From positions 1-64,000 of the IMG/VR virus record IMGVR_UViG_3300009788_000098: a stretch of DNA of 64,000 nucleotides; one strand, 5' to 3'. Below are positions 33,587 to 64,000 of this stretch, one piece after another (positions within the stretch are counted from its first letter, which is position 1; every line of letters begins with the position of its first letter). This DNA is from a virus. The position numbers and the translations under genes were made by a program. The notes beneath the pieces are model-generated. The model had not been told where the DNA came from, ran no database searches, and worked only from the letters and a program-made list of their open reading frames with translations.

Positions 33587-33589
33587 GCA

Positions 33590-34512: not shown

Positions 34513-35139
34513 ATGAAAGACACATCAGTCATAATTTTGTGTGCAGGTCATCAAGAACGATGGGGCGATATATCTTGTAAGCATCTTGTGCCGATTGACA
34601 AAGAACCGTTGCTGTTTCGGACTGTGAAGCAATGCAAGAAGATATTTGGGGTTGAGCCTGTAGTTGCTACGCAGAATCCTTTGCTTGATAAGTTGTCTCG
34701 GCATAAGGGGTATGAATCTCATATACCGTTTATGTGCAGGTGGACAGTTGAGACGCTTTCAAGCACTCTTGACCAGATTATATATTATCCAGGCGGAAAT
34801 CCATTACCGATAATGATTGTGTTATTAGGTGATGTTTATTATACTGATGTCACATTGAGGGTTATCAAGAAGGGCAATACATTAGTCTATGGCGATTCGT
34901 ATGAAATATATGGGTTGAAACTTTGCAATCATAATAGGGCTAGAGTTGCCTTAAAGAAAGCAATTGCACATGCTGAAGAAGGGGGCACAGGTAAGCTGTG
35001 GGAGTTCTACCGTGCTTATATTGATATTCCCATGATGCCTCATGTTGAGTGGTTGGATGTAGAGTTCACGTTTATTGATGATGAGACACAGGACTTTGAT
35101 ACTTATGAAGAATATAAACAGTTTATTGCAAATAGGTAG
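34513..35139 (+). CDS. MobA-like NTP-transferase, 208 aa
   Basis: The ATG at 34513 has AAGGAG 7 bases upstream, next to the 5' hairpin. SVIILCAGHQERWG (5-18) is the nucleotide-binding start of the GT-A nucleotidyltransferase fold, though the usual GxGxR loop is altered. CKHLVPIDKEPLLF and VLLGDVYYT (with an Asp for metal) follow. It probably activates a sugar or similar phosphate. First gene of the cassette. Confidence 0.7.
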   Translation: MKDTSVIILCAGHQERWGDISCKHLVPIDKEPLLFRTVKQCKKIFGVEPVVATQNPLLDKLSRHKGYESHIPFMCRWTVETLSSTLDQIIYYPGGNPLPIMIVLLGDVYYTDVTLRVIKKGNTLVYGDSYEIYGLKLCNHNRARVALKKAIAHAEEGGTGKLWEFYRAYIDIPMMPHVEWLDVEFTFIDDETQDFDTYEEYKQFIANR

Positions 35140-35159
35140 ATTTAGATGTTGGTTGCGCT

Positions 35160-35237
35160 ATGTTCCGAACAGGATTATTGGATTTATTCTTTGGAACACT
35201 TCTCATAGTTTCATTTATCGTATTGCCAAACATGTAA
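35160..35237 (+). CDS. Tiny membrane peptide, 25 aa
   Basis: ATG at 35160, ending in TAATG with the next gene. The product is MFRTGLLDLF then a hydrophobic run (FGTLLIVSFIVLP). It has the look of the other minimal membrane peptides in this genome (31087, 36293). No ribosome site; existence uncertain. Confidence 0.35.
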   Translation: MFRTGLLDLFFGTLLIVSFIVLPNM

Positions 35238-35371
35238 TGTGGCTTAAGACAGGTCATTATTGTGTGCTCTACAAGGACATAGCAGGAAGTACTGGAAAAG
35301 TTAGATGGTATCGGTGGGAGAAAGCCAGCAAACAATGTTCACTTCTTATCCCAGAAAGGTACAGGACATGA
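35237..35371 (+). CDS. Small basic protein, 44 aa
   Basis: TAATG overlap at the start and ATGA overlap with the cytidylyltransferase at the end. Basic and aromatic (MWLKTGHYCVLYKDIAG, then KVRWYRWEKASKQC). Supported by its coupled position; no family. Confidence 0.5.
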   Translation: MWLKTGHYCVLYKDIAGSTGKVRWYRWEKASKQCSLLIPERYRT

Positions 35372-36093
35372 AAGTCATTATCCTTGCAGGCGGACGTGGT
35401 ACAAGGTTAGGGCATGAGACAGATCGTATCCCTAAGCCGATGGTTGAGATTGGGGGGAAACCAATACTATGGCATATTATGAAGCACTATGCTCACTATG
35501 GGTTTAGTGAGTTTGTGGTTGCGGGGGGCTATCAAGTTGATATAATCAAGCATTATATTTGGGACAGAGGGTGGAATAGCGATAGTGGTGTTTACCAAGT
35601 TGATGAGAATTTTGATGTACAGGTTATTGATACTGGCTTAGATACGCAAACAGGTGAGCGCATCAAGAGGTTGCAGCCCCTTATAGATGATACATTCATG
35701 GTTACATACGGTGACGGGGTAAGCAATGTCAAATTGGATAATCTCATCGCGTATCATGGCACTCACCCCTATACAGCAACCATGACAGCGGTACGCCCTC
35801 CATCTAAGTTTGGTGTGCCGAAAATCAACGAGCTTGGTTTCGTGGAAGAGTTTGCCGAGAAGCCGCGCGGGTGGATAAATGGCGGGTTCTTTGTATTTGA
35901 GCCAAGCCTGTTTGAGTATTTAGAAGACGGGGCATCTCTGGAACAGCACACGTTATCAACACTTGCGCGCGAAGGTCAGTTGCTTGCATACAATCATTAC
36001 GACTTCTGGCAATGTATGGATACGCCACATGATCGTGATAAGTTGCGTGAACTTTGGGATAGCGGTAATGCGCCGTGGAGGATATGGGAATGA
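35368..36093 (+). CDS. Glucose-1-phosphate cytidylyltransferase, 241 aa
   Basis: I chose the ATG at 35368 (ATGA overlap). KVIILAGGRGTRLG (2-15) is the nucleotide-binding loop. IPKPMVEIGGKPILWHIMKH (near 22-41), VTYGDGVSN and FVEEFAEKPRGWINGGFFVF match RfbF/DdhA-type enzymes that make CDP-glucose from CTP and glucose 1-phosphate, the entry step to CDP-deoxysugars. Slightly shorter than the usual 255 residues. The catalytic positions look intact. Confidence 0.85.
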   Translation: MKVIILAGGRGTRLGHETDRIPKPMVEIGGKPILWHIMKHYAHYGFSEFVVAGGYQVDIIKHYIWDRGWNSDSGVYQVDENFDVQVIDTGLDTQTGERIKRLQPLIDDTFMVTYGDGVSNVKLDNLIAYHGTHPYTATMTAVRPPSKFGVPKINELGFVEEFAEKPRGWINGGFFVFEPSLFEYLEDGASLEQHTLSTLAREGQLLAYNHYDFWQCMDTPHDRDKLRELWDSGNAPWRIWE

Positions 36094-36296
36094 AGCGCGG
36101 TGATGCTCTCGACTACATCGTTGACATGCTCAATAGGGAAATCAAGAAACTCATTCCCAGAGCTGACATGGAGAAGAACCATGGTTGGTTTAGCGAAGCA
36201 GGGCGTATGGCATATAAGAAGCGTGGAAAATTGCAGGAAGTACGTAAAGCAATGCTTGCAATACCGCGCATAAAACAGATGGAGTTATTTGAATGA
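36090..36296 (+). CDS. Hypothetical helical protein, 68 aa
   Basis: ATGA overlaps at both ends (36090 and 36293). Basic helical protein (ALDYIVDMLNREIKKLIPRA). It breaks up the enzyme genes, so it may be a phage-specific insertion in a captured cassette. Function unknown. Confidence 0.55.
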   Translation: MKRGDALDYIVDMLNREIKKLIPRADMEKNHGWFSEAGRMAYKKRGKLQEVRKAMLAIPRIKQMELFE

Positions 36297-36403
36297 ATAG
36301 TCCTATATATTGTATTCCCGAGCATGTCTTGTTTTTTACATTGCTTATAGGATTTGTTATAGTTTTCGTTGTTGGGTACGGGTTAGGAGTTTCTAGGAAA
36401 TGA
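36293..36403 (+). CDS. Single-pass membrane peptide, 36 aa
   Basis: ATGA overlap with both neighbours. Hydrophobic residues 12-31 (VLFFTLLIGFVIVFVVGYGL) form one membrane helix, with a short basic end. Function unknown. Confidence 0.5.
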   Translation: MNSPIYCIPEHVLFFTLLIGFVIVFVVGYGLGVSRK

Positions 36404-37440
36404 AAGTTTTAGTTACAGGACATAACGGTTACATAGGATCAGTCCTCGTTCCGATGTTACAGGAACATGGACACACAGTTGTCGGCATGGATGCTGATTG
36501 GTTCAAGGATTGCCTATTCACAGTTCCTCAATACAAATTGCAGGAAACAAAGCGTGACATTCGTACAGTCCATGATGAGAACGAACTCAAAGGTTACGAT
36601 GCTATCATCTACCTTGCTAATTTGTGTAATGACCCGCTTGGCTGGCTCAATCCAACGCTCACCTACAAAATCAATCACGCCTGGTCAATGCGGTTTGCAT
36701 ACCGTGCCATGCTTGCAGGAGTTGAGAGATTTGTGTTTGCTTCCTCGTGTAGCGTGTATGGCAACGCAGATGGAGTTGTGGATGAGAGTTCTGAACTCAA
36801 TCCGCTCACGCCTTACGCAGGTGCTAAATTTCGCATGGAGGACAGTTTAGATGAATTCGGTGCAAGAGCACAAATGCTAAACCTTCCCTTCACGCCAGTA
36901 TCATTACGCAACGCAACTGTCTATGGTGTTTCCCCTAGACTTCGCACAGACATTGTGGTCAATGATCTTGTGAAATCAGCATACGTAACAGGCAAGGTGA
37001 CATTGTTGAGTGACGGCACGGCTATGCGTCCATTGGTGCATGTGCGGGATGTGTGCAGAGTCTTCGTCCTTGCGTTAGAAGCCCCGAAAGATGTTGTCCA
37101 TAGACAGAAGTTCAATATCGGTTCTGAGAACCTTGCTGTACTGGAAATTGCCAAGATTGTTGCGAACATTACGGAAGCCGAGGTAGAGATTGGAACTAGC
37201 GGTGCAGACACACGTAGTTATGAAGTTGATTTTAGCAAGGCGAAACGCCAATTGAACTTCAAGCCTAATTGGGAGGCATGGGATGGTGTTGAAGAACTGT
37301 GGGATGCGTTTGAGGCAACATGCGTTGATGGGGTTCTTGCAGGACATCCTATTGAGTGGTACAAGTTCAACCGCCTAAAGCGTATTCAATATCTGCAAGA
37401 ATCTGAACAGATTGATTATAAGTTGTTTTGGAAGGAGTAA
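36400..37440 (+). CDS. NAD-dependent SDR (epimerase/reductase), 346 aa
   Basis: TGHNGYIGSVLVPML (6-20) binds NAD. The catalytic region is ASSCSVYGNADG and NPLTPYAGAKFRMED, with the Tyr and Lys of YxxxK. There is no Thr-Asp-Glu triad as in 4,6-dehydratases, so epimerase or 4-ketoreductase is more likely. A C-terminal extension of about 50 residues follows. It would act on the CDP- or dTDP-sugar of the cassette. Confidence 0.8.
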   Translation: MKVLVTGHNGYIGSVLVPMLQEHGHTVVGMDADWFKDCLFTVPQYKLQETKRDIRTVHDENELKGYDAIIYLANLCNDPLGWLNPTLTYKINHAWSMRFAYRAMLAGVERFVFASSCSVYGNADGVVDESSELNPLTPYAGAKFRMEDSLDEFGARAQMLNLPFTPVSLRNATVYGVSPRLRTDIVVNDLVKSAYVTGKVTLLSDGTAMRPLVHVRDVCRVFVLALEAPKDVVHRQKFNIGSENLAVLEIAKIVANITEAEVEIGTSGADTRSYEVDFSKAKRQLNFKPNWEAWDGVEELWDAFEATCVDGVLAGHPIEWYKFNRLKRIQYLQESEQIDYKLFWKE

Positions 37441-37443
37441 GAA

Positions 37444-37683
37444 GTGACAAAAGTATTGCATAATGTGTGTGATATATGTGGAAAAGACAGATTATGGAAT
37501 GGTATTGCGGGATGGGCAGTTTTGAAACTGAAACCCAAAACTGAAGATGATAAAAAGACTTTGCTGTTTCAAGAATATTACAAGAATTACAGACAGTACT
37601 CTAGCAAAATGGATATATGTTATGTATGTACAAAAGAGTTTATTGCTTGGTTAGCAAATCGAAAGCGGAAGGAACTGCAATGA
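37444..37683 (+). CDS. Zinc-binding small protein, 79 aa
   Basis: GTG start at 37444 behind GGAAGGAG. CDICGKD (9-15) and CYVC (59-62) form a zinc ribbon, with a helical insert between. Ends in ATGA overlapping the methyltransferase. Its position within the cassette may be incidental. Confidence 0.6.
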   Translation: MTKVLHNVCDICGKDRLWNGIAGWAVLKLKPKTEDDKKTLLFQEYYKNYRQYSSKMDICYVCTKEFIAWLANRKRKELQ

Positions 37684-38834
37684 ACTGTCGCTCATGTAAC
37701 AGCACCGATTTACAACTCATCCTGGACTTGGGCGAGATGCCATTGGCAAACGCCCTGCTAGAAACCCCCGATCAACTCTGCAAAAAATATCCACTAGACG
37801 TGTGGTTCTGCAACGATTGCACATTGGTACAAATTAGCGAGACTGTTGCACCTGAGATACTGTTCAGTGACTATGCGTACTTTAGCTCGTACTCGGATAC
37901 GGTTGTGCAGAATGCGGCAGAGTTAGTAGAACACGTGATGTGGAAATATGAACCCCAAACTGTAGTTGAGATTGGGAGCAACGATGGGTACTTGTTGCAA
38001 CACTATCCAGAGGATATAAAGATACTTGGCTTTGAGCCAGCAGAGAACATTGCGAAGGTCGCTAATGCAAAAGGTATTAGCACAGATGCCTCGTTTTTTA
38101 CCAAGCGGGTAGCACAAATCTTGTGTGTTATGCCAGCGGATATTATCCATGCCAACAATGTCCTCGCTCATGTAGCAGACCTGAATGACTTCGTTGAGGG
38201 TATTGCAATACTTCTCGCAGACAATGGGACAGTCATTATCGAAGTCCCTCACGTCAAGGAATTAGTAACGCATTGCGAATTCGACACCATCTACCACGAA
38301 CATCTATGCTACTTCTCAATATCGGCTATCCACAACTTGTTGCAACGACACGGGCTACACATTCATGCTGTTGAACCAATTCCCATTCACGGTGGGTCAA
38401 TACGCATATTTGCCATGAAACGACCAAGTAGCTTCAAGATAGTACACGATGAGACCTCATTGCCCAGTTATTACAAGGGGTTTGCAGAGGCGGTTGTTTG
38501 GTACAGAAATCACTTCAAGAAGTTCCTTGATGATTTGAGACATGTCTGTGGCCCGATTGTTGCTTATGGTGCTGCCGCCAAGGGTGCGGTATTGCTGAAC
38601 TATTGTGGCGTTGGTGCAGAGATACTGGATTATATAGTTGACCGAAGTCCACACAAGCAGGGGAAGTACATGCCGGGGGTACGATTGCCAATCTTTCCTG
38701 TGGAGATGCTGCTAGAAGATCAGCCTAACTATTGCCTTATCCTTGCGTGGAACCATGCTGATGAGATAATGAAGCAACTGTCAGAATATAAGGGGAAGTT
38801 CATTATTCCAATACCGAATGTGAGGGTTGTATGA
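37680..38834 (+). CDS. Sugar C-methyltransferase-type SAM enzyme, 384 aa
   Basis: The N-terminal zinc motif CRSC (3-6) with CNDC (44-47), the SAM loop TVVEIGSNDGYLL (near 95), a conserved HGGSIRIF and the C-terminal NAD-like domain (GAAAKGAVLLNY) match the TylC3/NovU/EvaC group. These transfer a methyl to carbon 3 of a 4-keto deoxysugar nucleotide. A branched sugar product is therefore likely. I chose the ATG at 37680 (ATGA). Confidence 0.85.
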   Translation: MNCRSCNSTDLQLILDLGEMPLANALLETPDQLCKKYPLDVWFCNDCTLVQISETVAPEILFSDYAYFSSYSDTVVQNAAELVEHVMWKYEPQTVVEIGSNDGYLLQHYPEDIKILGFEPAENIAKVANAKGISTDASFFTKRVAQILCVMPADIIHANNVLAHVADLNDFVEGIAILLADNGTVIIEVPHVKELVTHCEFDTIYHEHLCYFSISAIHNLLQRHGLHIHAVEPIPIHGGSIRIFAMKRPSSFKIVHDETSLPSYYKGFAEAVVWYRNHFKKFLDDLRHVCGPIVAYGAAAKGAVLLNYCGVGAEILDYIVDRSPHKQGKYMPGVRLPIFPVEMLLEDQPNYCLILAWNHADEIMKQLSEYKGKFIIPIPNVRVV

Positions 38835-39352
38835 AGTTCATTGAGACCGAATTTGATGGCGTGTGGCTTATCAAGGCTGAACAACACTGGGACTTGCGTG
38901 GTGGCTTTGCTCGTGGCTTCTGCGCGAGAGAGTTTGAAGAACACAACTTGCCTACTAAAATTGTCCAGACTAATTGGGCGTATGACCACAGAGAAGGAAC
39001 TTGGCGTGGGCTACATTATCAAGTTGCCCCTCATAAAGAAGCCAAACTTATTGTGCCGGTGAACAGAATACACGATATTATTATTGACCTGCGCCCCAAG
39101 TCGGATACTTACATGGAGTGGGGTTCATTCGTGCTTACAGGGCGTACTATGCTCTACGTTCCAGAAGGGTTTGCGCATGGTCATCAGGCAATGGAAGATA
39201 ATGTGCGTATCTTCTACCACATGTTCAACTATTATAATCCTGAACATAAGAGGGGAATACGGCATGATGATTCAGCATTCAGAATGTGGTTGCCACTAGA
39301 GATTACAGCAATGTCTTTGCAAGACAAGCATTGGCCTAACTATGAAGCGTAG
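38831..39352 (+). CDS. RmlC-like sugar 3,5-epimerase, 173 aa
   Basis: Cupin of normal length for the family. DLRGGFARGF (21-30), TNWAYDHREGTWRGLHYQ (47-64, with the catalytic His 62) and VPEGFAHGHQ (about 110) match dTDP-4-dehydrorhamnose 3,5-epimerases. It would invert carbon 3 and/or 5 of a 4-keto sugar nucleotide. The usual partner 4,6-dehydratase is not in this window. Coupled on both sides. Confidence 0.85.
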   Translation: MKFIETEFDGVWLIKAEQHWDLRGGFARGFCAREFEEHNLPTKIVQTNWAYDHREGTWRGLHYQVAPHKEAKLIVPVNRIHDIIIDLRPKSDTYMEWGSFVLTGRTMLYVPEGFAHGHQAMEDNVRIFYHMFNYYNPEHKRGIRHDDSAFRMWLPLEITAMSLQDKHWPNYEA

Positions 39353-40478
39353 CATACCTATCGCTGGCCCGTGGATTACCCAGAAGGAAATAGACTATGT
39401 TGCCGATGCTGTTGCAAATGCGTGGTATCAAGATGCCGGTATTTACCATGTGCGCTTTGAGAATGCGTTTGCAGAGTACGTTGGGCGCAAACATGCAATA
39501 GCACTCCCGACATGCACATCTGCAATTCACCTTGCACTATTAGCATTGGGAGTTGGCAAGGGCGATGAGGTTATTGTTCCTGAACTAACGTGGATTGCAA
39601 CAGCAGCTCCCATTACTTATGTCGGTGCGACACCTGTGTTCTGCGATGTGGACAAAGATACGTGGTGCATGGACGTTGAGGCTTTGAAGATAGCAATAAC
39701 ACCAAGGACCAAGGCTATTATCCCTGTTGATCTCTACGGTGGGATGCCCGACTATGATGAGATATTGAAGATTGCCAAGAAGCATAACATTGCTGTCATT
39801 GAAGACGCAGCCCAAGCTATCGGGTCTGAGTACAAGAAGCACAAAGCAGGCTCGTTTGGAACAGTTAGTTGCTTCTCGTTTCATGGTAGCAAGACGATGA
39901 CTACGGGCGAGGGTGGAATGTTGGTTACTGACATGGACGAGGTATATAACCGCGCATTACATTATCGTGACCATTGCCGTGAGGGTATATCATATCGAAG
40001 CGATGCAATCGGATACAAATATAAGATGTCATCCATGCAAGCGGCATTGGGGTTGGCACAGTTGGAGCGCATTGATGAGTTAGTTGAGAAGAAACTTAAA
40101 TTGGCTGAATGGTATACTGATAGATTATGGAAGTGCAAAAAGATAATTTGTTGGAACTTGGAAGCTTCTCACACGAAGAACTCGTATTGGATGACTTCAA
40201 TCGTTATAGACTCTGATGAATATAATAATCCTGAGATATATCGAAACGAAGTGATGGAAGCATTAAAGGAAAGAAACATAGGTGTTCGTCCCGTGTTTTA
40301 TCCACTGAGTCGCTTAGCAGCCTATGGTGCTTATTCTAAAGGTGAATACGTTAGTTATCGCAGTCCAAATGCCGACTATATAGGTCGGCGTGGTATCAGC
40401 CTTCCCTCAGCACTATGTCTGACAGAAGAAGATGTTGATTACGTGTGCAAGAACCTGCTGGAGATATTAGATGCGTAA
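39342..40478 (+). CDS. DegT/DnrJ/EryC1-type aminotransferase, 378 aa
   Basis: PLP-dependent enzyme. TCTSAIHLALLALGVGKGDEV (58-76) holds the cofactor phosphate, EDAAQAIGS (154-162) the stacking residues, and FHGSKTMTTGEGG (180-192) the Schiff-base Lys 184. It would place an amino group on a keto-sugar nucleotide. Full length, no frameshift. It starts inside the RmlC-like gene. Confidence 0.9.
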   Translation: MKRSIPIAGPWITQKEIDYVADAVANAWYQDAGIYHVRFENAFAEYVGRKHAIALPTCTSAIHLALLALGVGKGDEVIVPELTWIATAAPITYVGATPVFCDVDKDTWCMDVEALKIAITPRTKAIIPVDLYGGMPDYDEILKIAKKHNIAVIEDAAQAIGSEYKKHKAGSFGTVSCFSFHGSKTMTTGEGGMLVTDMDEVYNRALHYRDHCREGISYRSDAIGYKYKMSSMQAALGLAQLERIDELVEKKLKLAEWYTDRLWKCKKIICWNLEASHTKNSYWMTSIVIDSDEYNNPEIYRNEVMEALKERNIGVRPVFYPLSRLAAYGAYSKGEYVSYRSPNADYIGRRGISLPSALCLTEEDVDYVCKNLLEILDA

Positions 40479-41319
40479 GATACTCGTTACAGGTGCAACT
40501 GGCTTCATCGGGAGGCAATGTTTGCAGTATCTAAACGACTATGAGGTTCATGCAACTTACTTGAGTGGTTGGAAATCAGAACGGTGGTTGACAACAGATG
40601 TTGTTTGGTATTGGGCAGATTTGCTAAATGATGCAAAATCTATTATAGAGACAGTACGCCCAACTCACCTCTTGCACTTCGCATGGTTTATGGAACACGG
40701 GAAGTACTGGACTTCTGAAAAGAACTTGATATGGTTGCAGGCAAGTACAAACTTGCTACGTGCCTTTGCAGATAATGGTGGTCAACGTGTCGTGATAGCA
40801 GGTAGTTGTGCGGAGTTCGGTAAGTCCCTATACGGTATCTGCAAACATTCGCTTCAATTAGTCACAAGTGCATATTGCAAAGCGAGAGGTATTAGCAGTG
40901 CTTGGGGACGAATATTCTTTCCATACGGCGCTTATGAGAGACCTCAGCGGTTAGTACCTTACGTTATAAATAATCTACTACAAAACAAGGAAGCACTTTG
41001 CACAAGTGGCACTCAGGTTCGGGATTTGGTGTATGTATCTGATGTCGCCAAGGCATTTGTAGACATTCTCAACTCGGACGTTCAGGGTGTTGTAAATATA
41101 GGTTCGGGAACAGGGACACCAATAAAGGAAGTTGTGACCACGATTGGCAAATTGTTGCAACGGGAGGAGCTTATCAAACTATGTGCAGTTCCTGACCGAC
41201 CTGATGAGACTGGAATTATCATTGCGAACAATAGTTGCTTGCAGGATATTGGCTGGTCACCTGAGTTTGATTTAGAGATTGGCATACAGAAAGCGATAGA
41301 CTACTGGACATCAAAATGA
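40471..41319 (+). CDS. NAD-dependent SDR reductase/epimerase, 282 aa
   Basis: TGATGFIGRQCLQYL (7-21) is the dinucleotide loop. AGSCAEFG...SLYGICKHSL holds a YxxxK motif. A C-terminal substrate domain has VRDLVYVSDVAKAF. Somewhat short for the family, as in 4-ketoreductases that finish deoxysugars. Likely a late step, after C-methylation, epimerisation or amination. Confidence 0.8.
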   Translation: MRKILVTGATGFIGRQCLQYLNDYEVHATYLSGWKSERWLTTDVVWYWADLLNDAKSIIETVRPTHLLHFAWFMEHGKYWTSEKNLIWLQASTNLLRAFADNGGQRVVIAGSCAEFGKSLYGICKHSLQLVTSAYCKARGISSAWGRIFFPYGAYERPQRLVPYVINNLLQNKEALCTSGTQVRDLVYVSDVAKAFVDILNSDVQGVVNIGSGTGTPIKEVVTTIGKLLQREELIKLCAVPDRPDETGIIIANNSCLQDIGWSPEFDLEIGIQKAIDYWTSK

Positions 41320-42419
41320 ATTGTCCTGTTTGCCAATCCAATCAAACAACTCTTTTTATTCAACGAGAGTCTGTTCCTGTTCATCAGAACGTTGTGATAA
41401 GGAGTTTGCAAGAAGCACGGAACGCCCCTGTAGGGACATTGGAACTCGTTGTTTGCGAGAGGTGTGGCTTTATCTTCAACCGTGCATTTGACCCTGCGGC
41501 AATGAACTATGAAGAACACTATGACAATAATCAAAATTACTCTTGCGTATTTCAGGAGCATGTTGCAGATCGAGCACGTTATCTGAACGAGAATATCAAG
41601 AACAGTGTGATAATCGAGATTGGGTGCGGGAATGGGGAGTTCTTGAGACAGTTAGTTTCAGATAGCAACATAGGATATGGCATTGACCCCGCTTACACTG
41701 GCTTGATGTCTGAGAAACGGGCGACGTTCAAGAGAAGCTATTTCAGCCCAGATGTAGTTGATGTTCTCGCAGATGTGGTTATATGTCGCCATGTCATTGA
41801 GCATATTCAAGACCCACTGCGTTTACTCAATGACATTAAACAGGTGGCAAAGGACTCAGCTAGAATATTTATTGAGACTCCCAACGCTTCGTGGATTCTT
41901 CGCAATCAGGCTTCTTGGGACTTTTTCTATGAGCATTGTTCGTATTTCTCGGCAGAGTCATTGACGTGTGCGCTCAACAGTGCGGGCATTAAGGCAGACC
42001 GATTGCACAACGTGTTTGATGGTCAATACTTATGGCTAGAAGCATCGTTGCCTGGCGACAGCAAACAGGGCATTCCCGAAACTGCTATACCTGTGCTTGC
42101 TCACGAATATGTCAGCAATAAAGATAGGCTAATAGATAACCACACTGCCATCTGGGGAGCTGGGGCGAAAGGTGTGACTTTTGCAAACTTGATTGATCCA
42201 GAGATGAAGCGGATAAGTTGCGTAGTTGATATAAATCCTAATAAGCAAGGTTGTTTTATTCCTTGTTCTGGTCATCCGATAATCAGCTATGCCGAGTTGG
42301 GGGATTACCATGTGGAAACGATAATAAATATGAATCCGAATTACTTTGACGAGAACGAAGCTATACTGCACGACATGAAATTTGATATTGATTTGATAGG
42401 GGTTGAGGAGTTGCTATGA
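41316..42419 (+). CDS. SAM methyltransferase with N-terminal zinc motif, 367 aa
   Basis: CPVC (3-6) with CERC (48-51), then the SAM loop IIEIGCGNGEFL (near 95) and RHVIEHIQDPL typical of Methyltransf_23-like enzymes. The C-terminal domain has WGAGAKGVTFANL, like the C-methyltransferase at 37680, so the two are related. Substrate may be the same nucleotide sugar or a glycan. Intact and coupled. Confidence 0.8.
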   Translation: MNCPVCQSNQTTLFIQRESVPVHQNVVIRSLQEARNAPVGTLELVVCERCGFIFNRAFDPAAMNYEEHYDNNQNYSCVFQEHVADRARYLNENIKNSVIIEIGCGNGEFLRQLVSDSNIGYGIDPAYTGLMSEKRATFKRSYFSPDVVDVLADVVICRHVIEHIQDPLRLLNDIKQVAKDSARIFIETPNASWILRNQASWDFFYEHCSYFSAESLTCALNSAGIKADRLHNVFDGQYLWLEASLPGDSKQGIPETAIPVLAHEYVSNKDRLIDNHTAIWGAGAKGVTFANLIDPEMKRISCVVDINPNKQGCFIPCSGHPIISYAELGDYHVETIINMNPNYFDENEAILHDMKFDIDLIGVEELL

Positions 42420-43144
42420 GCGAATTTGAGAAAGAAGTGCAGGACAATATCGCGCGACTGGGTGCAGATAATGTTGCTAAGAAGATGGGATATGAGTGGA
42501 TAGAACGTGTTGCTCCCAATGGCTACATGCACAACTTCACCTGGTTGGGGTTGCCGATTATTCAATTACCACAAGACATTATCGCATTGCAGGAAATCAT
42601 CTGGCGCACATACCCCGATGTGATAGTTGAGCTAGGGATAGCGCGTGGGGGCGGATTAGCATTCTACGCATCTATGCTAGAATTGAACGGTGGTGGCAGG
42701 GTTATTGGAGTTGACATTGACATCAGGGAACCCAATAGGATAGCCATTGAAGACCACGCAATGTGGGGGGCAATAGAGATGATAGAGGGATCATCGACAG
42801 ACATACGTGTCGTGAAAGAGGTGAAAGAACTCATCGACACTTACGATAGAGTTATGGTGTGCTTGGACAGCCACCACACACACGAACACGTCTTGCGAGA
42901 ACTAGAATTGTACTCTCCGTTGGTAACAAGAGGATGCTACCTTGTGGTATTCGACACCTGGTTAGAGGATTTGGCGACAGGAACGTTCCCAGACCGTCCG
43001 TGGGGAAAGGGGAACAATCCCAAGACTGCTGTGTGGGAATTTTTTGGAACTGGTGCAGGAAAACGGTTTGAGTTTGACAAGCGCATACAGAACAAGTTGG
43101 TGATGACCAGTAACCCTGATGGATATTTGAGGTGTGTGAAATGA
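42416..43144 (+). CDS. CmcI-type (cephalosporin hydroxylase/O-methyltransferase family) protein, 242 aa
   Basis: ELGIARGGGLAFYASML (72-88) is the SAM loop, GVDIDIREPN the acidic strand, and FDTWLEDLATGTFPDRPWG and GNNPKTAVWEFF are diagnostic of the CmcI family. Members linked to glycans methylate sugar hydroxyls, e.g. rhamnosyl O-methyltransferases. The metal-binding acidic residues appear present. Part of the same coupled run. Confidence 0.85.
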   Translation: MSEFEKEVQDNIARLGADNVAKKMGYEWIERVAPNGYMHNFTWLGLPIIQLPQDIIALQEIIWRTYPDVIVELGIARGGGLAFYASMLELNGGGRVIGVDIDIREPNRIAIEDHAMWGAIEMIEGSSTDIRVVKEVKELIDTYDRVMVCLDSHHTHEHVLRELELYSPLVTRGCYLVVFDTWLEDLATGTFPDRPWGKGNNPKTAVWEFFGTGAGKRFEFDKRIQNKLVMTSNPDGYLRCVK

Positions 43145-44133
43145 GATTTAGCATCGTAATCCCCAACCGCAACCGCGAAGATACGCTCCACTACACGTTG
43201 CAGACCTGCATTGAACAAGCCAACTTTGACGACTATGAAATTGTAGTCTACGACAATGCAAGTGATCCTCCAGCAGAAGTCAGACCTAGATGCACTCTCT
43301 ACCGTGGCGAGGAACCACTCTCAATGACACGAAGTTGGGAAGCTGCTGTAGGATACGCTAAGGGTGACTACATTATCGTTGTTGGCAGTGATGATGGGAT
43401 GATACCCCATGCTCTGCATGATATTGATGAAGTGCTAACCGCATTACACAACCCCCCTCTCTTGCGCTGGAATAGATGTTACTACACGTGGGCTAATGCT
43501 ACCCAAATAGCACTGCCTCCTCAACTGGGGGTGTTGCAGTTAGTCAAGGATGGTAGTTCGCGTATGCTCGATGCTAAGAAGCTGATTGATGCTGTAGCGC
43601 GCGGCAAGATGGATTATACGTTCCTGCCCATGCTTTACACAGCGGCCATTAGGAGAGATTTGCTAGACACAATGAGAGAACGAACAGGGAGTGTGTTTCA
43701 TTCGGTGTGTCCTGACATATTTTCGGGGTTTGCTTTTGCGTCTCTAGTAGACACAGTTCCGTGTATCAACAAGGCAATGACTATCAGCGGTGGAGGCAAT
43801 AGGTCAACGGGCTTTCATGTCATGGCTATTCCTTACGGCGAGATTAGCAAGGAATTTCTTGCCCTGAACAGACAGGATGGGCTTGTGTTGAATCACCGTA
43901 TCCCAGAGGGGTATTATGACCGCTTGGATGGGGGTTTGCAAGGTAGTTATTACACAGTTTATGATTTGGGTCTGATTGATTGGGATATAGCAGATACGCC
44001 AGAGAAGTTTACAGATATGCCTGCCTTTGATGGTCGGCGCGCAAATATGCGTGCTACTGACGTGTACCATGCTTCGATAATATGTGGGCGTGAGTTACAG
44101 TTTGAGCCTGATTTGAATTTTGTGGAGTGGTGA
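43141..44133 (+). CDS. Family 2 glycosyltransferase, 330 aa
   Basis: I chose the ATG at 43141 (ATGA). FSIVIPNRNREDTLHYTLQT (3-22) is the GT2 start, YDNASDPP the base contact, GDYIIVVGSDDG (near 80) the DxD-type metal site. The C-terminal half shares long blocks with the next gene (LYTAAIRRDLLD, FSGFAFAS, ending NFVEW). It would transfer the finished sugar or extend a glycan. Confidence 0.85.
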   Translation: MRFSIVIPNRNREDTLHYTLQTCIEQANFDDYEIVVYDNASDPPAEVRPRCTLYRGEEPLSMTRSWEAAVGYAKGDYIIVVGSDDGMIPHALHDIDEVLTALHNPPLLRWNRCYYTWANATQIALPPQLGVLQLVKDGSSRMLDAKKLIDAVARGKMDYTFLPMLYTAAIRRDLLDTMRERTGSVFHSVCPDIFSGFAFASLVDTVPCINKAMTISGGGNRSTGFHVMAIPYGEISKEFLALNRQDGLVLNHRIPEGYYDRLDGGLQGSYYTVYDLGLIDWDIADTPEKFTDMPAFDGRRANMRATDVYHASIICGRELQFEPDLNFVEW

Positions 44134-44134
44134 A

Positions 44135-45124
44135 ATGCCTAGATTTAGCATCGTAATCCCCGCCCGTAATCGGCACCATACGTTAGCATACACACTCAAA
44201 ACGTGTCTTGCGTGTGAGTACGACAACTACGAAATAATCGTATACGACAATGCAAGCATACCTCCGCTTGAAGTCCCAAGTGGCGTTACCCTCTACCGTG
44301 GCGAGAAGGCACTTTCCGTAACACGAAGCTGGAACGAGGCTGTCCTGCGCGCTACAGGAGAATACATCATTCTCTTTGGTAACGACGATGGCATTATTCC
44401 TTACGCTCTGCGCGACTTGGATACTATCCTAACGACAATGGGTAATCCGCCACTGCTCCGCTGGCGTAGGTGCTATTACACATGGGCTAATGCCGATATG
44501 ATAGGATTGCCACACCAGCGGGGAATTTTGCAACTGTCTATAGGCGGCACTCCACGCATACTAAACTCTAAGAAACTGATAAGCGCCGCAGTGCAACTCA
44601 AGATAGATTACACCTATTTGCCAATGCTGTACACGGCGACTATCAGGCGTGACCTAGTAGAAGAGCTATATGAGCGCACAGGATATGTATTTCACTCTCT
44701 CGCACCAGACCTGTTCTCAGGGTTTGCTTTTGCGGCAATGGTGGACAAAGTGCCATCAATTACTAAGCCCATGACCATCAATGCCGGAAGCAACGAATCA
44801 ACAGGTGTTAACGTGTTGGCTTTTGGCAAAACGGGGAAAGAGTCAGAGCTTCATAAGGAATTTATAAGGTTGAATTACCAGGATGGATTGATACCTGCTA
44901 ATCACATGACAAAACAAGAGCTGACACGACAAGCAGAATTTGAGAGGTGCTTTCGTATCATAGGAGAGTTGGGGTTGATAGACCATGACCCTGTGCCGTT
45001 CTCCGATGTGCCGGAGTTTGATGGAACAATTGAAGAAGTGTATGCAAACGATGTGTTTGAGGCATCGCAGATATGTGGGGAGAGATTAGATACGCCGTAT
45101 AGTTTGGAATTTGTGGAGTGGTAA
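44135..45124 (+). CDS. Family 2 glycosyltransferase, paralogue of the preceding gene, 329 aa
   Basis: ATG at 44135 just after the previous TGA. FSIVIPARNRHHTLAYTLKT, VYDNASIPP, EYIILFGNDDG and LYTATIRRDLVE align block by block with the protein at 43141, and both end FVEW. The product of a tandem duplication that has since diverged, so the two probably use the same or related donor on different acceptors. Confidence 0.85.
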   Translation: MPRFSIVIPARNRHHTLAYTLKTCLACEYDNYEIIVYDNASIPPLEVPSGVTLYRGEKALSVTRSWNEAVLRATGEYIILFGNDDGIIPYALRDLDTILTTMGNPPLLRWRRCYYTWANADMIGLPHQRGILQLSIGGTPRILNSKKLISAAVQLKIDYTYLPMLYTATIRRDLVEELYERTGYVFHSLAPDLFSGFAFAAMVDKVPSITKPMTINAGSNESTGVNVLAFGKTGKESELHKEFIRLNYQDGLIPANHMTKQELTRQAEFERCFRIIGELGLIDHDPVPFSDVPEFDGTIEEVYANDVFEASQICGERLDTPYSLEFVEW

Positions 45125-46684
45125 ATGAACATCGTATTCGTTGAGTTGCTGAAAACACCACTGGACAATATCCTCGCACATTTTGAAGGTAAGCATGTGA
45201 TAGCTGAGACTGTCTGTGTCCCATTGGGCATTATGTATCTGTCAGCTTACATTAAAGAAAACAACGATGTAGAACAAGTAGGGCTTATTGATTATCCGTT
45301 GATACCGCTCAGTGACTACAACGACTTAGACGAGTACATACTTGCTGGCATAAAGTCTATAGATTTCAGGCCAGATTTCATTGCTATCTCGCTCAATTAC
45401 ACTACCGCACATCACTTCTTTCTTGCCGTTTTGGAACAACTCAAGGCTTGTTGGCCTGATGCTACAACTGTGGTCGGTGGCACGCACGCTACATTCTACA
45501 CAGAGGGCATTGCCAAGAAGGTTGACTTCGTAATTGGGGGCGAGGGGGAACTTAGCTTCTCAGAGTTCATACGAGAATATCCCTATGTTGAGGACATACC
45601 AGGTGTTACACAACTCACAATGTCAGAAGCGGTATCAGACCTTGACACCATTCCAGACTGGGACTTGATAGATGTGGAAGCATATCGCAAGAGTGCTGGT
45701 ATCCACCCGCGAGATGGTAGAAGGCGAGAGTACGAAGCTATGATCCTGACTTCGCGCGGCTGTCCAATCGGGTGTAAGTTTTGTGCTAATTACATCATAC
45801 ACGGGCGCAAGATGCGTTTGCGTTCAACAGAAAGCGTACTAGCAGAAATGAAGGAACTGCGTACTCGGTATGGGTTCAACCGTTTTGTCATATTCGATGA
45901 CTACTTCGGTGGCAAGAAGAGGATACTAGAACTGCTGAACAGGGTTGTGGAAGAAGGGTTTGTTGTTACTGGTTACCCTAATGGTCTACACGTCAACTCC
46001 TTGGATAAGCAGATGCTCAATGCTATGATAGAAGCTGGCATGGAAGTAGCGACAATTGCTATTGAGTCCGGTTCACAGCACATACAGGACTATCTGAACA
46101 ACAAGGTAGACTTGGACAAAGCCAAGGAATTGGTAAGCTACCTGTATCGCAGAGGCATCATTGTTCGCATCTATATGATGTTAGGCTTCCCTGGTGAGAC
46201 TAAGGAACGGATGTTCGAGACTATAGATTATGCGAAGCAACTAGACGCAGACTGGGTTCACTTCGCGATAGCGACACCGCTCTTGGGTACTGAGATGCAC
46301 AGGGAGTTTACAGAGATGGGATGTCTGCGAGATAATCCTGACAGATGGCGTGTAGCGTCGCGTATGCACAGGGACTTTGATACGCTTGAGATATCTGCGA
46401 CTGAACTCAATGATTTGATGTATCTGGCTAATCTGGAAGTCAATTTCGTTTACAATACCAATATAGAAAAGGGCAATTGGCAGAGAGCGAGAGACTTGTT
46501 TGAAGGCATTCTGAAACTCTATCCGCATCATATAATTGCACTAGATGGCATAATGCGCTGTAATACGAAATTGGGCTATAATAGTATGGGAGAGTTTTGG
46601 CAAATAGCAAATTTGGTTGCTAATGATGAGAGAGCAGGGGAAATGAGACAGAAATATAGTTATCTTATGAGATATTTCCCATGA
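45125..46684 (+). CDS. B12-binding-type radical SAM enzyme, 519 aa
   Basis: The N-terminal Rossmann-like domain has VPLGIMYLSAYIKE and VVGGTHATFY, the hallmarks of cobalamin-binding radical SAM proteins. The cluster motif is RGCPIGCKFC (Cys 213, 217, 220), followed by a GSGSQ-like segment (ESGSQHIQDYLNNK). Such enzymes methylate unactivated carbons or rearrange carbon skeletons. With the sugar genes around it, a C-methyl or deoxy step is plausible. Coupled to the next gene by ATGA. Confidence 0.85.
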   Translation: MNIVFVELLKTPLDNILAHFEGKHVIAETVCVPLGIMYLSAYIKENNDVEQVGLIDYPLIPLSDYNDLDEYILAGIKSIDFRPDFIAISLNYTTAHHFFLAVLEQLKACWPDATTVVGGTHATFYTEGIAKKVDFVIGGEGELSFSEFIREYPYVEDIPGVTQLTMSEAVSDLDTIPDWDLIDVEAYRKSAGIHPRDGRRREYEAMILTSRGCPIGCKFCANYIIHGRKMRLRSTESVLAEMKELRTRYGFNRFVIFDDYFGGKKRILELLNRVVEEGFVVTGYPNGLHVNSLDKQMLNAMIEAGMEVATIAIESGSQHIQDYLNNKVDLDKAKELVSYLYRRGIIVRIYMMLGFPGETKERMFETIDYAKQLDADWVHFAIATPLLGTEMHREFTEMGCLRDNPDRWRVASRMHRDFDTLEISATELNDLMYLANLEVNFVYNTNIEKGNWQRARDLFEGILKLYPHHIIALDGIMRCNTKLGYNSMGEFWQIANLVANDERAGEMRQKYSYLMRYFP

Positions 46685-48216
46685 AAGTTTTATTGGGTGA
46701 CCTGCGCCACAAGACCATAGGCGCACACTCCATGCTTGTGCCGCTAGGAATTGGGTACGTTGCTGCGTATGCTAAGGACAGAAACGCAATAGAAATCCGT
46801 ATGCGTACTGACCCAGAACTTGCACTACAAGACATCACAGATTGGCAGCCAGACGTTATCGGGTTGGCGAACTTTGTCTGGAACGCGGGACTCAACGAAA
46901 TGGTTTACACATATGCCAAGGAACTCAACCCGAAAGTGGTAACCGTTGGCGGGGGGCCAGAGTTTTCTACAGGTTGTGACTTCTACGCCTATTACGAGGG
47001 GGAGGTGGCATTTACAGAGCTAATTAGAAACCTCATTGCAGGCATGGATGCACCGCACCGAGGGTTTGCCCCTGGGGGTGTGCCATTGCCACGCATCAAA
47101 AATCTTGACACTATCCCATCCCCCTACCTTGCTGGACTTTTAGATCAATGGCTTGATGGCACTCATATTCCTATAATACAAACAACTCGTGGATGTCCAT
47201 ACAGTTGTGGTTTTTGCAAGGAGGGTGCGGATGACCATCGCACGGTTGCTCGTTTTAGTTTAGAGCGTGTCAAAGAAGAACTCAACTATATCGCAGATAA
47301 GTTGCCAGAACTGCCCGAGCTTCAGATTGCAGATAGTAATTTCGGTCTATCGAGGCACGATGAGGATGTAGCAATGCACTTGCGTTGGTTGCAGGACAAT
47401 CGCAACTGGTGGCCTGTTATCAAGGCAGGAACTCACCGTGTCAACGATAGAGTTGTACGCATTGCGTCAATAGTGCGGAACAAGCTAGTGGCAGCAGGAT
47501 CATTACAGTCGCTCAACGAGGAAACCTTACATATCATCAGCCGCGAGAATGTTCCCTTTGAGGAATATTGCAAGCACGCTGAGACATTCAAGAAGCAGCA
47601 CAATCCGCTCATTGCAGAGCTGATTGTGCCATTGCCAGCAGAGACAAAGAAGTCGTTCTTTACGGGAGTAAGGAAGATGATGGGTGCGTCCATAAACAAC
47701 TTCTATCCGTACACACTCATGTTTCTGAAAGGGACGGCTATTTGCGAGATGCGCGAGAAGTACAGTATGGTGTCACGGTTTAGACTGTTGCCCAACCAAT
47801 TTGGGGAATACAACGGGAAGAAAGTCTTTGAACTAGAAGAAGTGTGCGTTGCCACAAATACAATGTCATTTGAAGATTACTTGGACTGTCGTGGGTTCAT
47901 GTTTGTTTGTCTCCTGTTGATGGACGCACGATTAGGTTGGTTCAGGCAGGACATTGATGATTATTTCAGCTTTGCAGTTCAGTTCTGGGAAGAGTTGCCG
48001 AACACAGATACTACTTTTGCTAGAATATATAAGGACTTTATGCTAGAAGCTAAGACAGAACTGTGGGATACGCGAGAAGCGTTTGTTGAACATTTCTCAA
48101 AGGATGAGAATTACGAACTATTGCTACAGGGCAATCTTGGGGATAACCTCTTCCGCAAGTACAGGGCAATAGGATTTATCTCTCTTATAGATACGCTTTA
48201 TGAGGCAGCAAAATGA
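46681..48216 (+). CDS. Second B12-binding-type radical SAM enzyme, 511 aa
   Basis: VPLGIGYVAAYAKD (20-33) and VTVGGGPEF (88-96) mark the cobalamin-type domain, and TRGCPYSCGFCKEG (Cys 172, 176, 179) binds the iron-sulfur cluster. The C-terminal 150 residues are helical and differ from the preceding enzyme. It is not a close duplicate of 45125, so the two likely do successive reactions. Coupled to the ATP-grasp gene. Confidence 0.85.
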   Translation: MKVLLGDLRHKTIGAHSMLVPLGIGYVAAYAKDRNAIEIRMRTDPELALQDITDWQPDVIGLANFVWNAGLNEMVYTYAKELNPKVVTVGGGPEFSTGCDFYAYYEGEVAFTELIRNLIAGMDAPHRGFAPGGVPLPRIKNLDTIPSPYLAGLLDQWLDGTHIPIIQTTRGCPYSCGFCKEGADDHRTVARFSLERVKEELNYIADKLPELPELQIADSNFGLSRHDEDVAMHLRWLQDNRNWWPVIKAGTHRVNDRVVRIASIVRNKLVAAGSLQSLNEETLHIISRENVPFEEYCKHAETFKKQHNPLIAELIVPLPAETKKSFFTGVRKMMGASINNFYPYTLMFLKGTAICEMREKYSMVSRFRLLPNQFGEYNGKKVFELEEVCVATNTMSFEDYLDCRGFMFVCLLLMDARLGWFRQDIDDYFSFAVQFWEELPNTDTTFARIYKDFMLEAKTELWDTREAFVEHFSKDENYELLLQGNLGDNLFRKYRAIGFISLIDTLYEAAK

Positions 48217-49187
48217 ATATCTTGGTAGCTGGAATTGGCGGGGCTTCTTTAGGGACTGAGATTATAAAGAGCTTGCAACACGCTGGCAAGTACACTGTGT
48301 ACGGTTGTGACATTTCCGAGTACGCCTATGGGCATTTTCAGGGGATACAGACCTTCAATGTGTCCAAGGAAAGGTATATCGAAGACGTGAAAGCAATATG
48401 CAAGCGTTATGATATTGATGCGATTATACCAGGCGCAGAGGGGTCGTTGAAGTTGCTGATAGAAGCAACAATCAATGCGCATATAGCATCTAACTCATTG
48501 GAAGTAGTTGACATTTGTTCAAACAAAGATATGTTATTTAGGCGGCTCAAACGATTGAAATTGCCAACACCATTTACAACTGTTATCACTAATCCTATTC
48601 AAGTGTTAGACGTTCCATATCCGTGTGTTATAAAACCTGCTACAGGGACAGGAGGCAGTCACCTTGTATTCTTGGCATCTGCCACAGAGGAAGCTGTCTT
48701 GTATACTAGTTATGTTCTGAAACACACAGAAATAGTTATGTTGCAAGAGTACATCCCACTGGACGAAGGTGAATTCACAGTTGGTGTTCTAACGCTGGGC
48801 AACAAGACACATTCTATTGCAATGCAACGTCTATTCCACTCTAAATTATCTATCAGAAGCGAGACAGAACATGGTCTAATCTCCAGTGGGTATAGCCAGG
48901 GTGTCATTGACGACTTCCCCGAAATAAGAAAGCAGGCAGAGGTCTACGCACAAGCACTAGGGAGTACAGGGCCGATGAACATCCAGGGGCGTGTCAAAGA
49001 TGGTGTTCTATACCCGTTTGAAATCAACCCACGGTTCTCGGCATCGACTTACTTGCGTACTCTAGCGGGATTCAACGAGATTGACATGTATTTGCAGTTC
49101 GTGCTGAATGAGGTTAGTCCACCTGAAACACCTATCAAGCGTGGTCTTTATTTGCGTAGTTTTACAGAAGTAGTGACGGAAAAATGA
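48213..49187 (+). CDS. ATP-grasp ligase, 324 aa
   Basis: An N-terminal pre-ATP-grasp domain (NILVAGIGGASLGTEIIKSL), then the ATP-binding core with CVIKPATGTGGSHLVFL (about 140-156), an EYI hinge and FEINPRFSAS (about 272-281) coordinating Mg. Resembles CarB/PylC-like ligases that join a carboxylate to an amine or thiol. In this context it could attach an amino acid to an amino sugar; that is inference. Confidence 0.8.
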   Translation: MNILVAGIGGASLGTEIIKSLQHAGKYTVYGCDISEYAYGHFQGIQTFNVSKERYIEDVKAICKRYDIDAIIPGAEGSLKLLIEATINAHIASNSLEVVDICSNKDMLFRRLKRLKLPTPFTTVITNPIQVLDVPYPCVIKPATGTGGSHLVFLASATEEAVLYTSYVLKHTEIVMLQEYIPLDEGEFTVGVLTLGNKTHSIAMQRLFHSKLSIRSETEHGLISSGYSQGVIDDFPEIRKQAEVYAQALGSTGPMNIQGRVKDGVLYPFEINPRFSASTYLRTLAGFNEIDMYLQFVLNEVSPPETPIKRGLYLRSFTEVVTEK

Positions 49188-63863: not shown

Positions 63864-64000
63864 GACAGATTCGTTCTATCCAGCGGATTAGGGGGAGGGA
63901 CTTCAAACTTGAACCCCAGAGCGTCAATAATCCGTTGTGCCTTTATTGCTCCAATGCCGTGTAGTTGCTGCAATCCATCTGCGCCCAATGCCAACACGCC
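63860..64000 (-). CDS. C-terminal end of a helix-hairpin-helix protein (truncated by window edge)
   Basis: Reading leftward from base 64000 the frame gives ALGADGLQQLHGIGAIKAQR, then IIDALGFKFE and a Pro-rich tail, stopping at 63860. LHGIGAIKAQRII is a helix-hairpin-helix (GxGxxxA) that can bind DNA. The rest lies beyond the window. Coupled to the methyltransferase by GTGA. Confidence 0.65.
   Translation of the reverse strand, partial: GVLALGADGLQQLHGIGAIKAQRIIDALGFKFEVPPPNPLDRTNLS

What the first reader, a model, noticed from the sequence alone, without database searches (positions are those of the whole stretch)
34513..49187. A phage-borne cassette for a branched, amino- or methyl-modified sugar
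The sequence shows, in one coupled run: an NTP-transferase, a glucose-1-phosphate cytidylyltransferase, two SDRs, a TylC3-type C-methyltransferase, an RmlC-like epimerase, a DegT aminotransferase, a second SAM methyltransferase, a CmcI-type methyltransferase, two GT2s, two radical SAM enzymes and an ATP-grasp ligase. Known families place these in deoxysugar and glycan biosynthesis. Such a full set is unusual inside a tailed phage. Inference: the phage makes its own sugar for host-surface remodelling, virion decoration or DNA modification. The missing 4,6-dehydratase suggests dependence on a host intermediate.
Basis: partly seen in the sequence, partly recalled or inferred. Interest (0 to 1): 0.8.

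Follow-up and report, generated by a model that had tools for sequence, protein, structure and literature searches.

The report
Phage-borne branched-sugar biosynthesis cassette
A complete 85-kb bacterial virus carries, as an extra 15-kb block, a coherent set of enzymes to build an unusual methyl-branched (probably also amino- and O-methyl-) sugar and attach it to something, most likely its own particle or its host's surface; such sugar kits are known in phages, but this one follows a bacterial layout that does without the usual dehydratase.

Summary
Confirmed. Window 34513-49187 holds the enzymes listed, inside a complete 85,243-bp tailed-phage genome (123-bp end repeats; TerL, tape measure, Dit). 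The core RfbF-SDR1-CMT-RmlC has the order of a Verrucomicrobiota operon; motifs of RfbF, CMT, RmlC and DegT are kept. The last 11 genes are translationally coupled. In the sister phage G416 the same interval has no sugar genes, so the cassette is an accessory insertion.

The inference "missing 4,6-dehydratase means host dependence" is weakened: in 630 bacterial genomes, those with RfbF but no RfbG are strongly enriched for this SDR1 family (14/26 versus 4/171; p=2e-11, uncorrected for phylogeny). SDR1 resembles the C4-dehydrogenase Cj1427; a dehydratase-free route (CDP-glucose, C4 oxidation, C3-methylation, epimerisation, C4 amination or reduction) is my preferred, untested reading. Three operons hold both enzymes, so SDR1 is not strictly a substitute.

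The acceptor is unproven. I favour virion glycans: a second, lineage-conserved glycosylation module lies between capsid and tail genes, other phages carry these genes beside head/packaging genes, and no flippase, multi-pass membrane protein or base-hydroxymethylating enzyme was found. Host-surface remodelling remains a strong rival. Phage sugar kits are known; the makeup is a new variant.

The parts
34513..35139 (+). MobA-like NTP-transferase (ATG at 34513; ORF opens at TTG 34495)
   Evidence: NTP_transf_3 7e-5, 23.4 bits, below cut-off 27; weak assignment
35368..36093 (+). RfbF-like glucose-1-phosphate cytidylyltransferase
   Evidence: TIGR02623 263 bits (equivalog cut-off 300.25); PDB 1tzf 5e-61 with collinear GGxGTRL / KPMVEIGGKPILWHIMK / YGDG motifs
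36400..37440 (+). SDR1: extended SDR, SSCSVYG and YxxxK, no dehydratase TD[EK]; proposed C4 oxidase
   Evidence: PDB MoeE5 1e-26 and 6vo6 1e-24; orthologs next to RfbF in bacteria; motif alignment and tree
37680..38834 (+). TylC3/TcaB9-type sugar 3-C-methyltransferase (CMT)
   Evidence: PF08421+PF13489+PF08484; PDB 5t64 1e-64, 4rv9 6e-64, TcaB9 1e-63, Y-x-E-H kept
38831..39352 (+). RmlC-like 3,5- (or 3- or 5-) epimerase
   Evidence: PF00908 8e-44; PDB E 6e-27, RGLH and catalytic Tyr/Asp region aligned
39342..40478 (+). DegT/DnrJ/EryC1 PLP aminotransferase, closest to C4-aminating perosamine synthase
   Evidence: PF01041 3e-114; PDB 3bn1 1e-80, PLP Lys aligned
40471..41319 (+). SDR2: extended SDR, YGICK active site, putative ketoreductase
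   Evidence: PF01370 7e-33
41316..42419 (+). MT23: SAM methyltransferase with a partial CMT-like architecture
   Evidence: PF13489 1e-22, PF08484 8e-9
42416..43144 (+). CmcI/rhamnosyl O-methyltransferase family, putative sugar O-methyltransferase
   Evidence: PF04989 4e-78; PDB CmcI 7e-8; 53% identical homolog in a Verrucomicrobiales sugar cluster
43132..44133 (+). GT2a glycosyltransferase, no multi-pass membrane segment
   Evidence: PF00535 3e-12; no match in the phage collection
44120..45124 (+). GT2b glycosyltransferase, tandem paralog of GT2a (56% identity)
   Evidence: PF00535 3e-11; alignment
45125..46684 (+). B12-binding radical SAM enzyme 1
   Evidence: PF04055 2e-25, PF02310 1e-16; several B12-rSAM models, none over cut-off
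46681..48216 (+). B12-binding radical SAM enzyme 2, KedN5-like
   Evidence: NF033712 1.7e-36, below cut-off; PF04055 26.5 bits, below cut-off 29.5
48213..49187 (+). ATP-grasp ligase (PylC-like N-terminus)
   Evidence: PF02655 2e-9, PF15632 7e-9, PF21360 1e-6
31178..32113 (+). SDR0: WbmH-like nucleotide-sugar epimerase upstream of the cassette; catalytic Tyr replaced by Phe
   Evidence: PDB 2q1w 3e-91; alignment shows gSFAISK against sSYAISK
63860..64000 (-). 3' end of the 1072-aa GT4-GT2-GT2-HhH protein (record 63860-67078), first gene of the second glycosylation module (to record 69858), between tail genes and the putative capsid gene
   Evidence: Pfam; 45-50% identical in sister phages G417 and G416, same position

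Best explanation
The block is an accessory nucleotide-sugar cassette of a tailed phage. Proposed route: RfbF makes CDP-glucose; SDR1 oxidises C4 without dehydration; CMT adds a methyl at C3, acidified by the 4-keto group; the RmlC-like enzyme epimerises C3/C5; DegT aminates C4 (or SDR2 reduces it); MT23, CmcI, the B12-radical SAM pair and the ATP-grasp ligase tailor it further; the paired cytoplasmic GT2s transfer it. Most likely acceptor: a glycan on virion proteins, whose core is made by the lineage's conserved glycosyltransferase module in the structural gene block. Shown here: gene content, complete phage genome, accessory insertion, conserved motifs, same core order as bacterial operons, statistical link of SDR1 with RfbF lacking RfbG. 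Inferred: every reaction, the substrate of each tailoring enzyme, and the acceptor.
For: Family and PDB matches with active-site motifs. Same order RfbF-SDR1-CMT-RmlC in a Verrucomicrobiota locus without RfbG (L240) and related loci in Pseudomonadota (L202-L204, L208, L212, L216). RfbF+/RfbG- genomes enriched for SDR1, 14/26 against 4/171, p=2e-11. Precedent: Cj1427 makes a 4-keto GDP-heptose without dehydration, followed by an RmlC-like C3/C5 epimerase and a C4 reductase (PMC10680097). Virion acceptor: a glycosyltransferase/methyltransferase/kinase-like module lies between the putative capsid gene and the tail genes and is conserved in sister phages; in L107 GT2-MT23-RmlC-CMT follow the major head protein, in L129 the set precedes TerL and portal, in L128 it abuts tail and head-closure genes; no multi-pass membrane protein by hydropathy; virion glycosylation is known in mycobacteriophages (stated in PMC12619734).
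Against: No experiment. RfbF falls below the curated equivalog cut-off (263 of 300 bits), so its substrate is not certain. Three bacterial operons hold RfbG and SDR1 together (L237-L239), so SDR1 may do something else (for example 4-keto reduction or C4 epimerisation) and the 4-keto sugar may come from elsewhere. The cassette is on the strand opposite to the structural block. No direct link between the GT2 pair and a virion protein.
Confidence: 0.45

Rival explanations
1. The cassette remodels the host surface: the phage GT2s add the sugar to lipid-linked O-units or capsule precursors in the cytoplasm and host enzymes export them, changing receptors and excluding other phages; this could act during plasmid-like lysogeny.
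For: Close homologs lie in bacterial polysaccharide clusters (L012). Phage O-antigen nucleotide-sugar genes are reported (PMC12911398, PMC11295528). An actin-like partition protein at 18157-19140 suggests plasmid-like maintenance.
Against: No flippase, polymerase or multi-pass membrane protein; no GtrABC set recognised; related gene sets in other phages lie next to head and packaging genes.
Confidence: 0.33
2. The phage lacks a 4,6-dehydratase and borrows a host CDP- or dTDP-4-keto-6-deoxy sugar; SDR1 acts later as a reductase or epimerase.
For: No dehydratase in the record; RfbF-RfbG-SDR1-CMT-RmlC operons exist (L237-L239); phage L129 carries RfbG.
Against: 14 of 18 SDR1+RfbF+ genomes have no RfbG anywhere, and the phage carries its own RfbF, which would be needless if it borrowed the next intermediate.
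Confidence: 0.3
3. The sugar is attached to phage DNA as a hypermodification against restriction.
For: The 1072-aa glycosyltransferase has a C-terminal helix-hairpin-helix domain; virus-encoded glycosyltransferases that modify DNA are described (reference 46 cited in PMC12619734).
Against: No TET/JBP, thymidylate-synthase-like or hydroxymethylase enzyme among the scanned ORFs, which include nearly all unassigned ones of 200 aa or more outside the structural block; the phage carries ordinary DNA methyltransferases instead.
Confidence: 0.06
4. The radical SAM pair and the ATP-grasp ligase form a separate small-molecule or peptide-tailoring unit that merely follows the sugar genes.
For: Their best models (KedN5, Sden_1168, PylC-like) are not sugar enzymes; not seen together with CMT in the other phages examined.
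Against: Same coupled run with 0 to -4 bp junctions; a related B12-radical SAM gene lies near CmcI in a Desulfovibrionales sugar cluster (L015).
Confidence: 0.2
5. The block is host DNA joined to a phage by mis-assembly.
For: Homologs are bacterial; the sister phage lacks it.
Against: Terminally repeated record, phage modules on both sides collinear with G416, small phage-type ORFs between cassette genes, matching composition, similar sets in other phages.
Confidence: 0.03

Closest known systems
Verrucomicrobiota/Pseudomonadota polysaccharide operons RfbF-(RfbG)-SDR1-CMT-RmlC (L240, L237-L239, L216, L208)
   Same: Same core enzymes; L240 has the same order and no RfbG
   Different: The phage adds, in one run, DegT, SDR2, MT23, CmcI, two GT2s, two B12-radical SAM enzymes and an ATP-grasp ligase
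Campylobacter jejuni GDP-heptose pathway with Cj1427 C4-dehydrogenase, Cj1430 epimerase, Cj1428 reductase (PMC10680097)
   Same: Logic of C4 oxidation without dehydration, then epimerisation and C4 reduction; SDR1 matches 6vo6, which I identify from memory as Cj1427, at 1e-24
   Different: CDP-hexose rather than GDP-heptose is expected; the C-methyltransferase and aminotransferase are extra; SDR1 is not shown to have this activity
Phage sugar cassettes: L129 and L128 (IMG/VR), Synechococcus phage DSL-LC02 (GMD-CMT-GDP-fucose synthase plus glycosyltransferases), huge phages LR756502, LR745206, LR756501
   Same: Phage-borne C-methyl-sugar genes with glycosyltransferases
   Different: DSL-LC02 uses GDP-mannose; L129 has RfbG; none of them has a close match to this GT2 pair, and I saw no radical SAM/ATP-grasp tail in those examined
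Mycobacteriophage virion glycosylation (Freeman et al. 2023, cited in PMC12619734)
   Same: Phage-encoded glycosyltransferases acting on capsid and tail tube
   Different: No dedicated nucleotide-sugar pathway is mentioned there; a virion acceptor is unproven here
GtrABC seroconversion cassettes
   Same: The middle domain of the fused glycosyltransferase matches a GtrB-like family
   Different: No flippase or multi-pass GtrC-type protein

Membership tests
TylC3/TcaB9-type sugar 3-C-methyltransferase | Zn-binding + SAM + C-terminal domains (PF08421, PF13489, PF08484) | tested here: met
   All three over cut-off
TylC3/TcaB9-type sugar 3-C-methyltransferase | Y-x-E-H catalytic motif | tested here: met
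   IYHEH aligned to IYDEH of 5t64; that Tyr, Glu and His are catalytic is from memory of TcaB9 work
Glucose-1-phosphate cytidylyltransferase (RfbF) | Score over the curated TIGR02623 cut-off | tested here: not met
   263 bits against 300.25: an RfbF-like enzyme, exact specificity open
Glucose-1-phosphate cytidylyltransferase (RfbF) | Conserved nucleotide and sugar-binding motifs of 1tzf | tested here: met
   Full-length alignment, 5e-61
CDP-glucose / NDP-sugar 4,6-dehydratase | [TS]-D-[EK] motif and curated cut-off | tested here: not met
   SDR1 41 bits against 278; SSCSVYG in place of TSDKCYE; no other candidate in the record
Cj1427-type C4-dehydrogenase | NAD(H)-dependent C4 oxidation with alpha-ketoglutarate recycling | not testable with these tools
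   Similarity only: 90 bits to 6vo6, YxxxK kept
RmlC-type 3,5-epimerase | Catalytic His and Tyr | tested here: met
   RGLH and the Tyr region aligned to RmlC structures; scores below TIGR01221 cut-off, 118 against 156
DegT/perosamine-synthase-type C4 aminotransferase | PLP-binding Lys in the SFxxxK motif | tested here: met
   FSFHGSK aligned to FSFFGNK of 3bn1
GtrABC seroconversion cassette | GtrA flippase and multi-pass GtrC | tested here: not met
   No ORF with more than two predicted membrane segments (simple hydropathy)
Glycosylated hypermodified DNA (T4 or TET type) | Enzyme that makes the hydroxylated base | tested here: not met
   None recognised by Pfam or PHROGs; several early ORFs remain without any family
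Virion glycosylation system | Glycan on purified virion proteins | not testable with these tools
   Only gene position and conservation
Tailed phage (siphovirus-like) | TerL, tape measure, distal tail protein, end repeats | tested here: met
   phrog_2 2e-35, tape measure 2e-65, Dit 1e-10, 123-bp repeat

The most novel reading that the evidence does not exclude
An uncharacterised SDR family (signature [SG]SCSxYG...YxxxK) gives a dehydratase-free CDP-sugar pathway (RfbF-SDR1-CMT-RmlC) that makes C-methyl-branched hexoses keeping the 6-hydroxyl, used by bacteria of at least two phyla and carried by phages as self-sufficient kits to decorate their virions with an amino, C- and O-methylated sugar tailored by B12-radical SAM enzymes.
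Probability: 0.2. Interest if true: 0.75.

Novelty: new variant of a known kind. Interest (0 to 1): 0.5.

Why it matters
If the dehydratase-free reading holds, it defines a CDP-glucose branch shared by bacteria and phages and makes it testable with four enzymes in a tube. It would also show that a phage can bring nearly the whole supply line for a rare sugar, not only the transferase, which bears on how phages escape receptors, antibodies and host defences through glycans.

Tried and rejected
Strict exclusivity of SDR1 and RfbG looked near-perfect in Pseudomonadota (10/14 against 1/95) but was weakened by a second phylum, where three genomes have both in one operon. Host contamination: rejected. 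TAG recoding to explain the split helicase: rejected, TAG ends 19 other called ORFs of 120 aa or more, among them long structural genes. Single-sequence scan of viral contigs with CMT found nothing, the alignment-based scan found hundreds, so the first negative was a matter of sensitivity. An AlphaFold model of GT2a was poor (pLDDT 36) and was not searched. GT2a had no PDB or phage relative. Consensus promoters: 24 found against 33 expected, so not used as evidence, though near-perfect ones sit at both cassette ends (34346, 49375). Host could not be named: the nearest bacterial homologs are spread over several phyla.
Full report
What is there. The window is bases 1-64000 of an 85,243-bp virus record; the ends of the record share a 123-bp direct repeat. 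It is a tailed phage: TerL (phrog_2, 2e-35), tape measure (2e-65), Dit-like and minor tail proteins, GH25 endolysin, actin-like partition protein and several DNA methyltransferases. The finding at 34513-49187 is confirmed gene by gene. From 37680 to 49187 eleven genes are joined by overlaps or zero gaps (-14 to 0 bp); the three genes before them are separated by 228-306 bp with small ORFs between. The first gene, an NTP-transferase, is only weakly assigned.

Are the enzymes intact? The RfbF-like protein aligns over its whole length with S. Typhi glucose-1-phosphate cytidylyltransferase 1tzf (5e-61) but scores 263 bits against the curated 300. CMT aligns with sugar 3-C-methyltransferases (1e-64) and keeps the Y-x-E-H motif. 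The RmlC-like and DegT proteins keep their catalytic regions; DegT is closest to perosamine synthase, a C4 aminotransferase. SDR1 and SDR2 keep YxxxK but lack the TD[EK] of dehydratases. The upstream SDR0 (31178-32113) is a WbmH relative (3e-91) with Phe in place of the catalytic Tyr.

Is it an insertion? The closest relative found with long sequence, G416 (79.5 kb; TerL 48%, putative capsid protein 58% identity), is collinear. Between its helicase (51215-52846) and its tail genes (from 59484) lie 6.6 kb without sugar genes; in our phage the same interval holds the 15-kb cassette. The cassette is accessory. By contrast a second glycosylation module (record 63860-69858: 1072-aa GT4-GT2-GT2-HhH protein, methyltransferase, unknown protein with DDYW motif, methyltransferase, RIO-like kinase) lies between the putative capsid gene and the tail genes and is shared with G416, and in part with G417, in the same place. 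In G416 and G417 the methyltransferase slot carries an added or fused sulfotransferase-like protein.

The missing dehydratase. The best candidate in the record for 4-keto formation is SDR1. I asked whether bacteria with this SDR1 have the CDP-glucose 4,6-dehydratase. In 399 Pseudomonadota genomes, 109 have RfbF, 96 RfbG and 14 an SDR1 ortholog; of RfbF+ genomes, 10 of 14 without RfbG have SDR1 against 1 of 95 with it (p=2.5e-10). In nearly all of these RfbF lies within about 5 kb of SDR1. In 231 Verrucomicrobiota genomes the numbers are 4 of 12 against 3 of 76 (p=0.006). Pooled: 14 of 26 against 4 of 171. These tests are not corrected for phylogeny, and some genomes are drafts. One locus, L240, has RfbF-SDR1-CMT-RmlC in the phage's order with no RfbG in the genome; three relatives (L237-L239) have RfbG between RfbF and SDR1. 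In the tree these four form one branch. So the absence of a dehydratase is a normal form of this pathway, and SDR1 is its constant part. Because the C-methyltransferase family needs a 4-keto sugar (established for TylC3/TcaB9, from memory), the simplest route without RfbG is C4 oxidation by SDR1, as Cj1427 does to GDP-heptose, followed there too by an RmlC-like epimerase and a C4 reductase (PMC10680097). SDR1 matches 6vo6 at 1e-24; that 6vo6 is Cj1427 is from memory. This is an inference, weakened by the three operons with both enzymes.

Is it unusual in phages? Confirmed phages: L129 (TerL 1e-266, portal 4e-111) has GT2, SDR2, MT23, CmcI, RfbF, RfbG, CMT and RmlC just upstream of the packaging genes; L107 has GT2-MT23-RmlC-CMT directly after the major head protein; L128, with head-closure and tail genes, has CmcI, SDR2, SDR1, RfbF, CMT and RmlC and no RfbG; L113 carries a CMT upstream of a major head protein. 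Huge phages and a cyanophage carry related sets. What stays unusual is the length of the set here: aminotransferase, two B12-radical SAM enzymes, an ATP-grasp ligase and a GT2 pair without relatives in the phage collection.

What is it for? No flippase, polymerase or multi-pass membrane protein is evident, so a Gtr-type mechanism is not met; no base-hydroxylating enzyme was found, so DNA modification is unlikely. The second module in the structural block and the position of related genes beside head genes in other phages favour a virion glycan, but host-surface remodelling with host export machinery stays possible. I put the virion reading somewhat ahead and leave the acceptor open.

Noticed in passing
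window 32768-34345: The helicase is split by an in-frame TAG at 33584-33586, where the sister phage G416 reads Gln in an intact 543-aa ORF. TAG is an ordinary stop elsewhere in the genome, so this is a nonsense mutation, a sequencing error or read-through.
   Followed up: partly
record 63860-69858 (window end; L004 860-6858): Second glycosylation module inside the structural block: a 1072-aa GT4-GT2-GT2-HhH fusion, methyltransferases, a conserved unknown protein (DDYW motif, no Pfam or PHROG match) and a RIO-like kinase, conserved in sister phages.
   Followed up: partly
window 31178-32113: WbmH-like epimerase with Phe at the catalytic Tyr position; possibly inactive or altered.
   Followed up: partly
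L220 17354-18082 and L221 16847-17980: In G416 a sulfotransferase-like ORF sits beside the MT24 gene of the second module, and in G417 it is fused to it: a variable tailoring slot.
   Followed up: no
window 18157-19140: Actin-like (ALP/MreB-like, phrog_691) partition protein, conserved in G416; suggests plasmid-like maintenance of the phage.
   Followed up: no
L004 7230-8687 and 13648-15870: The putative capsid protein and the large structural protein at 76648-78870, though conserved among the sister phages, have no PHROG match: a poorly described phage lineage with 475 TerL relatives confirmed in IMG/VR.
   Followed up: no
L108 11439-14042: A phage helicase interrupted by an intein-like segment with an HNH domain.
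   Followed up: no
record 83119-83613 (L005 5119-5613): A nitroreductase-family gene (6e-28) near the right end of the phage genome.
   Followed up: no
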